Of a DNA stretch of 64,000 bases, positions 869-20,658 are shown piece by piece. The DNA comes from Sphingobium sp. (GTDB lineage Bacteria; Pseudomonadota; Alphaproteobacteria; Sphingomonadales; Sphingomonadaceae). How positions within the stretch are numbered: position 1 is the first letter of the stretch; the number at the start of each line of letters is the position of its first letter. A model generated the notes under the pieces. That model saw only the letters and a program-made list of their open reading frames with translations, searched no databases and was not told the origin of the DNA. The position numbers were made by a program, and so were the translations under genes. The stretch spans positions 85,518 through 149,517 of the forward strand of contig JAHFPV010000010.1 in the NCBI GenBank assembly GCA_023266575.1, given 5' to 3'.

Positions 869-1288
869 CCCTCTCCCTCCGGGGAGAGGGTTGGGAGAGG
901 GGGAGCAACAGTGCGGCTGGACCCAACACTGAAGCAGCGCGCAAAACATATGCGCGCCAACCCCACCCCCGCCGAACAGAAACTCTGGCTTGCCCTGCGC
1001 GCCAACCGTTTTGAAAACCGACAATTCACGCGCCAGACCATCATCGCGCCCTATATCGTCGATTTCGCGTCAAAGGCCGCGGGCCTCATCATCGAAGTCG
1101 ATGGGGATACACATTCCGCCAAAGATCGCTATGACGCGCGGCGAACCGAATTTCTGGAATCGCTGGGGTATCGCGTGATCCGTTTTGCCAATCCCGATGT
1201 CATCAGCAATATCGAGGGTGTATTGAGCGTGATTGCCGATGCGTTGCGCGTGCCCCCTCTCCCCAGCCCTCCCCCCCTAGGGGGAGGG
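869..1288 (+). mobile_element. DUF559 unit 1: nuclease gene between hairpin-type inverted repeats
   Basis: Left arm 869-903: hairpin CCCTCTCC (869-876) / GGAGAGGG (883-890), then GGGAGAGGGGG. Right arm about 1252-1288: the same architecture in opposite orientation, with hairpin CCCTCCCCC / GGGGGAGGG (1267-1275 / 1280-1288). The arms are imperfect inverted copies of about 38 bases. One DUF559 gene lies between them, starting 7 bases after the left arm and stopping 6 bases past the right arm. I see no target duplication. The mobility is inferred from the second unit at 14511-14987, which has the same plan. Confidence 0.5.
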
Positions 1289-7938: not shown

Positions 7939-8117
7939 CCCTCTCCCTTTGAGGGAGAGGGTGTGGAGACTTGGCAGCTTGCTGCCTAGTCGTAGCAGGG
8001 AGAGGGTGTGCTAAGCCAACGCAAGCCAGCCGCCTCTGCGTCGAACCCCCTCTTCCAAGTCCGCCTAAGCGACTGCGTCGCCAAGGCTTCCTATCCTTCT
8101 CCCCGGCGGGGAGAAGG
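7939..8117. repeat. Composite inverted-repeat element, copy A (179 bp)
   Basis: Two outward halves face each other. The left half begins with hairpin CCCTCTCCC (7939-7947) / GGGAGAGGG (7953-7961), then ACTTGGCAGC, hairpin GGCAGC/GCTGCC and GGGAGAGGGTGTG (7998-8010). The right half, read on the minus strand, begins with hairpin CCTTCTCCCC / GGGGAGAAGG (8095-8104 / 8108-8117), then CCTTGGCGACG, a GCCTaag arm and ends in GGAAGAGGGGG. Copy B at 20479-20658 has the same parts in the same order in the opposite orientation. It occupies the space between bestrophin and the DAACS gene. Confidence 0.75.
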
Positions 8118-14510: not shown

Positions 14511-14987
14511 CCCTCTCCCTTTAGGGGAGAGGGAGGGGCCCGCCGCGAAGCGGTGGGAGGGTGAGGGGAATGAAGCGACCTGATCCTGCAACGCCAGACT
14601 CGCTGAATCGGGTTCGCGCCATGCGACGCGACCCGACCGAGCCGGAAAGGCGGCTCTGGGCCAGATTGCGCAGTCGCCAGCTTGCAGGACTAAAATTCCG
14701 GCGACAGGTTTGGCTGGTCGATTACATCGCTGATTTCTATTGCGCCGATCTCCGTCTGGTCATCGAAGTTGACGGCGATGACCATGCCGTTAGGGAAGCA
14801 GCCGACCGGCATCGGTCGGAAAGACTGGCACGAGAAGGCTTCCGCATCGTCCGTTTCGCCAATGCGGATGTGTTGAGCAATATCGAAGGGGTGTTGGAGA
14901 CAATATTGATGACGGCGCGCCAAAACCCCTCACCTTCCCACCCGGCTGCGCCGGGCGGGCCCCTCCCTCTCCCCCAAGGGGAGAGGG
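14511..14987 (+). mobile_element. DUF559 unit 2: nuclease gene between about 60-bp terminal inverted repeats
   Basis: Left arm 14511-14568 and right arm 14926-14987 are inverted copies. By eye, the outer 34 positions agree at 32 and the inner 17 at 16; the variable part between them is a hairpin that keeps its pairing although its bases differ. Each arm is hairpin CCCTCTCCC/GGGAGAGGG-type, then GGGGCCCGCC plus a second hairpin, then GGGAGGGTGAGGGG. The arms enclose a single DUF559 gene. The left arm ends in the ribosome site of that gene, the right arm in that of aroC. No clear target duplication. Confidence 0.65.
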
Positions 14988-14995
14988 GAATATGA
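14570..14995 (+). CDS. DUF559 (Vsr-like endonuclease fold) protein, copy 2
   Basis: 141 residues from ATG 14570, with GTGAGGGG at once upstream, all of it inside the left repeat; GTG 14561 is an alternative. Family core: [43 protein letters not shown] (probable metal site) and [19 protein letters not shown], clearly homologous to the copy at 911-1294 over the whole core. The C-terminal 25 or so residues ([17 protein letters not shown]) are translated repeat. The TGA overlaps the aroC ATG, so aroC translation may be coupled to it. Nuclease activity is predicted, not shown. Confidence 0.8.
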
Positions 14996-20478: not shown

Positions 20479-20658
20479 CCTTCTACCCGGCGGGGAGAAG
20501 GATACGCAGCCTTGGCGACGAAGGCGCCTAGGCGAAGTTGGATGAGGGGGATCGGCGCTGATCGTGCGCGCAGCGGTGCGGTCGCTACACCCTCACCCAG
20601 CTACGACTAAGGCTGCAAGCAGCCAAGTCTGCGCAGCCCTCTCCCTCAAAGGAGAGGG
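20479..20658. repeat. Composite inverted-repeat element, copy B (180 bp)
   Basis: Fills most of the 282-base gap between the small Cys protein and recQ, in which I see no gene. Same parts as copy A (7939-8117) but inverted: hairpin CCTTCTACCC/GGGGAGAAGG (20479-20501), CCTTGGCGACGAAGGCGCC, GTTGGATGAGGGGG, then ACCCTCACCCAGCTACGACTA, GGCTGC/GCAGCC hairpin, CCAAGTCTGCGCAG and hairpin CCCTCTCC (20637-20644) / GGAGAGGG (20651-20658). The middle, about 20552-20587, differs from copy A, whereas the halves match closely. Confidence 0.75.

What the first reader, a model, noticed from the sequence alone, without database searches (positions are those of the whole stretch)
14511..14987. DUF559 nuclease gene enclosed by 60-bp terminal inverted repeats between fabI and aroC
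The two flanks are nearly identical inverted copies (outer 34 positions: 32 match; inner 17: 16 match), each made of two hairpins plus GGGTGAGGGG. The middle hairpin differs in sequence but keeps pairing, as expected if structure is what is recognised. Only one gene lies inside, a Vsr-like DUF559 protein. The left repeat is its ribosome site; its last residues are translated repeat; the right repeat is the ribosome site for aroC. This has the look of a self-spreading palindrome plus its own nuclease, like REP/RAYT but with a non-transposase enzyme. I know of no described mechanism for it, though I cannot check the literature.
Basis: partly seen in the sequence, partly recalled or inferred. Interest (0 to 1): 0.85.

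Follow-up and report, generated by a model that had tools for sequence, protein, structure and literature searches.

The report
Hairpin-ended mobile element with DUF559 nuclease
A tiny nuclease gene sits between mirror-image DNA hairpins, and the same gene-plus-hairpins unit recurs in many groups of bacteria, so it looks like an overlooked kind of spreading DNA element and a likely source of small repeats that have had no known cause.

Summary
In detail: a DUF559 (Vsr-like) gene lies between 58/62-bp inverted repeats in fabI-aroC (32/34 and 16/17 matches). It is not a one-off. All 7 DUF559 genes of this genome are enclosed this way, as are 87/116 in the family (controls 2/1726), 43/67 in other families and classes of the phylum (4/931) and 22/32 found by HMM in genomes of other phyla (0/277); loci below 70 bits are not (1/15). 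DUF559-bearing genomes are rich in palindrome copies (>=10 in 45/61 versus 8/188 genomes). Hairpin 2 differs between arms in 48/53 elements yet pairs in both; 47/60 distinct triloops are C-GNA-G, the very stable DNA mini-hairpin. Copies 96-97% identical occur at unrelated sites of one genome, ending near the hairpins. The palindrome is the known but orphan TM_ECO/PIT triplex motif, whose authors found no mobility gene; in E. coli one copy lies beside the DUF559 gene ycjD. Best reading: a REPIN/RAYT-like element using a PD-(D/E)XK, homing-type nuclease instead of an HUH transposase (no Y1 transposase in this genome). Cutting and copying are inferred, not shown.

The parts
14511..14533 (+). left arm, hairpin 1 (CCCTCTCCC-TTTA-GGGGAGAGGG)
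14539..14557 (+). left arm, hairpin 2 with a GNA-type triloop (GCGAAGC apex)
   Evidence: DNA fold; loop statistics
14558..14568 (+). left arm, G-rich tail pointing at the gene
14570..14995 (+). DUF559 (PF04480) nuclease ORF, 141 aa from ATG; domain at about 14606-14914; last ~23 aa are translated right arm; stop overlaps the aroC start
14926..14936 (-). right arm, G-rich tail
14937..14959 (-). right arm, hairpin 2 (different stem, GCGCAGC apex)
14965..14987 (-). right arm, hairpin 1
869..903 (+). second element of the window, left arm
929..1246 (+). second element of the window, DUF559 domain
   Evidence: (G000:C17:86446-86763), E 8.4e-35
1253..1288 (-). second element of the window, right arm
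7939..8117 (.). gene-free palindrome pair 7939-7961 / 8095-8117 (REPIN-like, somewhat degenerate)
20479..20658 (.). gene-free palindrome pair 20479-20501 / 20637-20658 (REPIN-like, somewhat degenerate)

Best explanation
The 477-bp unit is a mobile element of a class that I found no description of: one gene for a small Vsr-fold PD-(D/E)XK nuclease (DUF559) between two inverted arms. Each arm is a palindrome, often a second hairpin with a GNA loop, and a G-rich tail. Shown here: the unit recurs across phyla; arm type tracks nuclease type; palindrome copies, many in gene-free inverted pairs (REPIN-like, ~100-180 bp in this genome), are numerous where the nuclease gene is present; near-identical copies sit at unrelated sites of one genome and end within about 10 bp of the outer hairpin. 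Inferred: the nuclease binds the arms when they fold as single-stranded hairpins (for example on a lagging-strand template), cuts at or near them, and repair or template switching copies the unit or its short gene-free form into intergenic sites. It works like REPIN/RAYT, and in enzyme ancestry like a homing endonuclease, but is a member of neither.
For: Flanking inverted palindromes: 7/7 in this genome (scores 19.5-41.5); 87/116 family loci (85, corrected) versus 2/1726 local control windows; 86/101 above 70 HMM bits, 1/15 below; other families of the class 28/41, other classes of the phylum 15/26, controls 4/931; other phyla by HMM 22/32 versus 0/277. Dosage: >=10 palindromes in 45/61 genomes with strong DUF559 versus 8/188 others, 44/61 after taking off two arms per DUF559 match; within the family, one genome per genus, >=5 in 26/46 (25/46 after taking off arms) versus 0/13. 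Arm type tracks protein: Mantel r 0.478, 0/2000 permutations; same-genome pairs with dissimilar proteins are no more alike in arms (0.240) than unrelated ones (0.236). Structure: hairpin 2 differs but pairs in 48/53; C-GNA-G in 47/60 distinct triloops. Copies: 97.9% over 516 bp in G085; 96-97% over 438-469 bp within G368 with unrelated flanks. Fold: I-Bth0305I homing endonuclease and, more weakly, Vsr. No Y1_Tnp in G000. dN/dS 0.00-0.22 in four comparisons.
Against: No transposition event or cleavage was observed. No consistent target-site duplication was seen. At fabI-aroC the element co-diverges with its neighbours, and other sites are shared across genera, so much of its history is vertical. 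Eight of 188 genomes without strong DUF559 hold ten or more palindromes: G152 74, G236 118, G295 103, G247 42, G257 174 (G236 and G257 incomplete), G186 13, and G116 and G147, where the reversed pattern is about as common or commoner. Five of 61 genomes with strong DUF559 have none by this pattern. Gene-free palindromes resemble the genome's own DUF559 arms clearly in only 5 of 10 genomes. The arm-protein correlation is partly expected from physical linkage. In G085 the shared stretch runs some 30-40 bp beyond the hairpins, so the unit's outer limits are not settled. E. coli ycjD has the motif only on its downstream side.
Confidence: 0.7

Rival explanations
1. The palindromes are an independent repeat family moved by another enzyme (an unseen transposase or host repair), and DUF559 is a frequent passenger or a domesticated repair nuclease that tolerates or tidies them.
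For: Solo palindromes and gene-free pairs exist without the gene. Several genomes have many palindromes but no strong DUF559. The Caulobacter DUF559 protein VsrA is proposed to act in Vsr-like repair and is tied to the SOS response (PMC12907096, passages).
Against: Enclosure on both sides in matched inverted copies in 86 of 101 family loci above 70 bits and in 17 of 23 HMM-found Firmicutes loci. Y1_Tnp is found in only 8 of 26 palindrome-rich family genomes, whereas short DUF559 is in 26 of 26. Other transposase families were not searched.
Confidence: 0.15
2. The arms act as RNA: bidirectional terminators or mRNA-stabilising structures of a horizontally moving small gene, kept for expression.
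For: The arms flank the gene tightly and the ORF stop lies inside or beyond the start of the right arm in 99 of 128 loci. Enterobacter sp. 638 authors presume a role of the repeat in transcription termination (PMC2869309, passages).
Against: Gene-free inverted pairs are numerous. GNA/GNNA loops are described as extraordinarily stable mini-hairpins of DNA (PMC4686876, passages) and lie on opposite strands in the two arms. PIT motifs are reported to show no promoter or terminator activity (PMC4666352, section 20).
Confidence: 0.08
3. Chance or compositional artefact: G+C-rich genomes throw up such hairpins everywhere.
For: Polypurine tracts are common in G+C-rich intergenic DNA; in a few genomes of the phylum sample the reversed pattern reaches 25-34 hits (G116, G147, G332).
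Against: Control windows from the same regions 2/1726, 4/931 and 0/277; in the 59 family genomes the pattern read backwards gives 0-3 hits per genome against up to 140.
Confidence: 0.01

Closest known systems
REP/REPIN elements and their RAYT (Y1 HUH, TnpA-REP) transposases
   Same: Palindromic hairpins flank a single nuclease gene; short gene-free inverted pairs spread in the genome; repeat type tracks enzyme type; largely vertical enzyme with within-genome repeat spread (RAYT traits recalled; the REPIN papers were seen only as search listings).
   Different: The enzyme is a PD-(D/E)XK Vsr-fold protein, not an HUH nuclease; no Y1_Tnp in this genome; arms are polypurine palindromes with a GNA hairpin, not GTAG/CGTC-tagged.
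TM_ECO / PIT intrastrand triplex motif (Holder et al. 2015, PMC4666352)
   Same: Same sequence pattern CCCTCNCCC-N3-6-GGGNGAGGG-N3-GGGNGAGGG at several DUF559 loci; inverted pairs occur in E. coli (5 in MG1655).
   Different: Described as an orphan repeat: the authors report no common flanking function and no mobility activity near it (section 20). The DUF559 partner is the new part.
Vsr-like homing endonuclease I-Bth0305I (PDB 3r3p)
   Same: Closest characterised fold apart from an uncharacterised endonuclease-like structure (3hrl): sequence profile E 3.6e-5, Foldseek E 1.5e-4.
   Different: No intron or intein and no homing site seen; the gene lies between hairpin arms in intergenic DNA.
Vsr very-short-patch repair endonuclease (PDB 1cw0) and Caulobacter VsrA (DUF559)
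   Same: Related fold, weaker match (Foldseek E 0.028); VsrA contains a DUF559 domain (PMC12907096, passages).
   Different: Vsr genes are typically next to a methyltransferase gene and are not described with arms or gene-free repeats. Whether vsrA of Caulobacter has arms was not tested.

Membership tests
REPIN/RAYT | Y1 HUH transposase encoded by the element | tested here: not met
   PF01797 has 0 matches in G000; the encoded protein is PF04480 with a PD-(D/E)XK-type fold
REPIN/RAYT | enzyme gene flanked by inverted palindromes of the same type as dispersed gene-free pairs | tested here: met
   but the type match between gene-free copies and own arms is clear in only 5 of 10 genomes tested, G000 0.075
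TM_ECO intrastrand triplex motif | CCCTCNCCCN3-6GGGNGAGGGN3GGGNGAGGG | tested here: inconclusive
   Hairpin 1 and the purine tail are present, but in the finding hairpin 2 sits between them. Arms of the strict pattern occur at other DUF559 loci, for example L102, L263 and L265
Homing endonuclease | catalytic fold of the I-Bth0305I / Vsr group | tested here: met
   invariant E26, Q46, D55, E66, D68, H72 among others in 36 sequences
Homing endonuclease | cuts the cognate empty site and is copied into it | not testable with these tools
   needs biochemistry
DDE insertion sequence / MITE | target-site duplication next to terminal inverted repeats | tested here: inconclusive
   read by eye: no consistent duplication at the ten Oscillospiraceae copies printed or at fabI-aroC
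Anti-phage defence system | match to a PADLOC model | tested here: not met
   0 families

The most novel reading that the evidence does not exclude
DUF559 nucleases with hairpin arms are a class of minimal mobile elements, found in many bacterial phyla and possibly archaea, that moves through single-stranded, GNA-capped hairpins, using a Vsr/homing-type nuclease in place of any known transposase. The orphan triplex repeats (PIT/TM_ECO), reported in thousands of copies in proteobacterial genomes including E. coli, are its non-autonomous offspring.
Probability: 0.55. Interest if true: 0.94.

Novelty: categorically new. Interest (0 to 1): 0.88.

Why it matters
It would add a mobile-element class whose only enzyme is not a transposase, recombinase or HUH nuclease of any group known to me, spread over many phyla. 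It gives a candidate maker for a repeat reported 3,610 times in 262 proteobacterial genomes with no assigned function (PMC4666352). It gives a testable function to DUF559, including E. coli YcjD. It offers a second, independent case of palindrome-nuclease co-evolution to compare with REPIN/RAYT.

Tried and rejected
Rfam: one sub-threshold chance match. PADLOC: none. PHROGs: one weak family of unknown function. NCBIfam: only PRK09767, below its cut-off. RAYT as driver: absent in G000; in the family 8 of 26 palindrome-rich against 4 of 33 other genomes carry Y1_Tnp, p 0.11. Automatic classification of tail direction was unhelpful: 41 towards the gene, 7 away, 86 of 134 unclassified; I do not use it. 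E. coli contrast: a place covering at least 80% of the fabI-ycjD-sapF query occurs in 3362 of 5426 genomes. Two genomes without it that I opened show a regulator and efflux genes next to fabI, not a clean empty site. Among 39 of the 40 listed records, the 25 with ycjD hold more motif-like places than the 14 without (mean 3.4 against 1.9 beyond the site itself, p 0.003), but strains are not independent and the count is crude, so I give it little weight. The search for related loci set is biased because one search peptide (QNPSPSHP) is translated repeat; the HMM set avoids that bias, although its genomes were reached through. Searches placed four loci near contig ends (L064, L069, L081, L083) wrongly; one search rescored them (family 85 to 87, other classes 14 to 15 at score 18 or more). 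Searches were not rerun with them.

Full report
WHAT IS THERE. The window (G000 contig 17; closest named relative of the protein in Sphingobium terrigena, 99% identity) carries between fabI and aroC a 141-aa ORF with a DUF559 domain (PF04480, E 1.7e-34) between two inverted arms, 14511-14568 and 14926-14987. Each arm holds a CCCTCTCC palindrome, a second hairpin whose stem differs between arms, and a G-rich tail.

IT IS A RULE, NOT A CASE. PF04480 matches seven loci in the genome; all seven have inverted palindromes on both sides (scores 19.5 to 41.5), most of them of different sub-types. In 59 family genomes, one per genus, 53 have a DUF559 match, 137 matches in all. I scored the inverted match between the 250 bp left and right of the domain for 116 of them (the seven own, 29 returned by the search, 80 fetched; 21 weaker or partial ones not used). 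87 of 116 reach 18 (85; one search corrects four loci near contig ends), against 2 of 1,726 windows slid over the same regions. The 15 loci below 70 bits, mostly with shared neighbourhoods, give 1 of 15, and those above give 86 of 101, so the association belongs to one part of the DUF559 family. Outside the bacterial family (69 loci used of more than 150 listed, two of them same-family and both flanked), other families of the class give 28 of 41 and other classes of the phylum 15 of 26, with controls 4 of 931.

OTHER PHYLA. Relatives of the window protein found by DNA pattern (62 loci, one dropped for a short flank) give 42 of 61 against 2 of 1,430: 16 of 17 Alphaproteobacteria, 13 of 22 Firmicutes, 3 of 8 Bacteroidota, single loci of several further phyla, and one of three archaeal loci (phylum labels are mine, from the record titles; many are metagenome bins). 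That set is biased by a repeat-derived search peptide. I therefore searched 39 of those genomes with the Pfam profile, fetched 40 of about 80 further listed copies (the 30 loci returned itself were not scored), dropped 8 duplicates and found 22 of 32 flanked, controls 0 of 277; 17 of 23 in Firmicutes and 5 of 9 elsewhere.

GENE-FREE COPIES. In G000 the pattern CCCTCNCCN3-8GGNGAGGG occurs at 51 places, none for the reversed control. At least nine pairs lie 72-86 bp apart; the three such pairs that I read (L009/L010, L012/L013, L015/L016) are inverted copies with facing tails, like REPINs. Across 249 genomes of the phylum, 45 of 61 with strong DUF559 (E at most 1e-15) hold ten or more palindromes against 8 of 188 others (Fisher odds ratio 63, p 1e-27); taking off two arms per DUF559 match leaves 44 of 61. 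Within the family, five or more occur in 26 of 46 genomes with a DUF559 above 70 bits (25 after taking off arms) and in 0 of 13 without (p 2e-4 and 3e-4). Y1_Tnp is found in 12 of 59 of these genomes and in 8 of the 26 palindrome-rich ones; own genome none. Exceptions: eight genomes have ten or more palindromes without strong DUF559 (G152, G236, G295, G247, G257, G186, G116, G147; the reversed pattern is high in G116 and G147), and five with strong DUF559 have none by this pattern.

PALINDROME AND NUCLEASE GO TOGETHER. Over 86 flanked family loci, protein similarity and arm similarity correlate in 3,394 different-genome, non-syntenic pairs (Mantel r 0.478, 0 of 2,000 permutations). Within a genome, dissimilar nucleases have arms no more alike than unrelated ones (0.240 over 37 pairs against 0.236), so arm type follows the protein, not the host. 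Linkage alone could give part of this. As an unlinked test, gene-free palindromes (first-listed places only) match the arms of the same genome better than random sets of loci in G118, G106, G200, G239 and G093 (fraction at most 0.005), weakly in G000 (0.075), and not in G126, G046, G216 or G073 (an eleventh genome had no scored locus).

THE STRUCTURE IS DNA-LIKE. Of 202 elements with score 16 or more, 53 have a second hairpin in both arms; in 48 of these the stems differ in sequence while both pair, against 8.5% for a chance hairpin in one shuffled tail. Among 81 distinct second hairpins of those 48 elements, 60 have triloops, 47 of them C-GNA-G (p 6e-45 against 1/16; related elements are not independent). 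GNA or GNNA loops closed by G-C pairs are described as extraordinarily stable DNA mini-hairpins (PMC4686876, passages). The loop lies on the strand that reads inwards in each arm, hence on opposite strands at the two ends. This points to recognition of folded single-stranded DNA. The other 149 elements lack a second hairpin of this kind in one or both arms.

MOBILITY. At fabI-aroC (41 genomes searched, 39 with AroC, 30 loci read), 25 same-genus loci split into 6 with element, 2 with a solo palindrome, 9 short or empty and 8 with other sequence; the 5 loci of other families are short. A second site (L006) is occupied in 5 of 10 genomes. A gene-free pair (L012) is intact in 2 of 9 loci read; one more holds a single arm nearby. 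In G085 three copies sit at unrelated sites, two 97.9% identical over 516 bp, the match running some 30-40 bp beyond the hairpins. In one Oscillospiraceae genome (RGIG8734, G368) copies 96-97% identical over 438-469 bp lie in different contexts, the match ending within about 10 bp of the outer hairpin, one copy lacking its left hairpin 1. Against recent movement here: several sites are shared across genera, and the fabI-aroC copy has silent divergence like its neighbour in G009 (dS 0.18 against 0.19 in fabI) and somewhat higher in three others, with dN/dS 0.00-0.22, so the protein is under constraint. In G006 the same site holds a nuclease only about half identical between the same type of arms, which I cannot explain.

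THE ENZYME. A 36-sequence alignment keeps E26, Q46, D55, E66, D68 and H72 among its invariant columns. The model (mean pLDDT 76.8, repeat-coded tail below 50) matches an uncharacterised endonuclease-like structure (3hrl), then the homing endonuclease I-Bth0305I, and more weakly Vsr. YcjD of E. coli was earlier linked to Vsr by profile comparison (PMC1189080, passages).

WHAT WAS KNOWN. The palindrome with its purine tail is the TM_ECO/PIT motif of Holder et al. 2015 (PMC4666352; abstract, sections 15, 16 and 19, the first part of section 20, and passages). They report 3,610 copies in 262 proteobacterial genomes, 23 in MG1655, a stable triplex of the DNA in vitro, excess variation near it, and no mobility genes beside it. 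In MG1655 one copy lies between fabI and the DUF559 gene ycjD, a second partial copy overlaps the end of ycjD, and the other side has a different hairpin; YcjD is 44% identical to the window protein. The DUF559 text search lists 14 papers; I opened only the Caulobacter one (passages) and saw the rest as listings. Searches listed no paper that by title or abstract start links DUF559 with palindromes, but only open papers are held and no preprints.

VERDICT. Shown: a recurrent, hairpin-ended, single-gene unit with dispersed palindrome copies and multi-copy spread. Inferred: that the nuclease acts on its own hairpins and drives copying. It works like REPIN/RAYT but fails the RAYT membership test; it shares fold with homing endonucleases but has no shown homing site.

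Noticed in passing
L042 (G006, fabI-aroC): The same site holds a DUF559 gene only about half identical to the window's, between arms of the same type: gene swap between arms or independent insertion.
   Followed up: partly
L025, L028, L036, L040, L041: In other same-genus genomes the fabI-aroC gap holds a two-gene insert resembling a DUF4160/DUF2442 pair (names recalled, not searched); the gap seems to be an insertion-prone spot.
   Followed up: no
L318, L320, L321, L322: At the site where G000 has the L006 element, relatives carry an unrelated palindromic repeat (GTCACCCCGGACTTGATCCGGGG...), whole or in part.
   Followed up: no
G152, G236, G295, G247, G257: Genomes with 42-174 palindromes but no or only weak DUF559 match: lost partner, incomplete assembly, or another driver.
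   Followed up: no
L089, L193 (G293): Two DUF559 loci of one genome about 5.7 kb apart with unusually long (about 98 bp) arms containing a further complex inverted structure.
   Followed up: no
L231:2337-2455: Next to E. coli ycjD a short stretch repeats part of the gene's 3' end (GAATATTCTCCAGCACCGTCTCC twice), possibly a remnant of a second DUF559 copy.
   Followed up: partly
G126 and G247 (lists): These genomes hold a second palindrome type (CCCTCTCCTTCCAGGAGAGGG and its complement); in G126 it does not match the DUF559 arms examined, in G247 no DUF559 was found.
   Followed up: no
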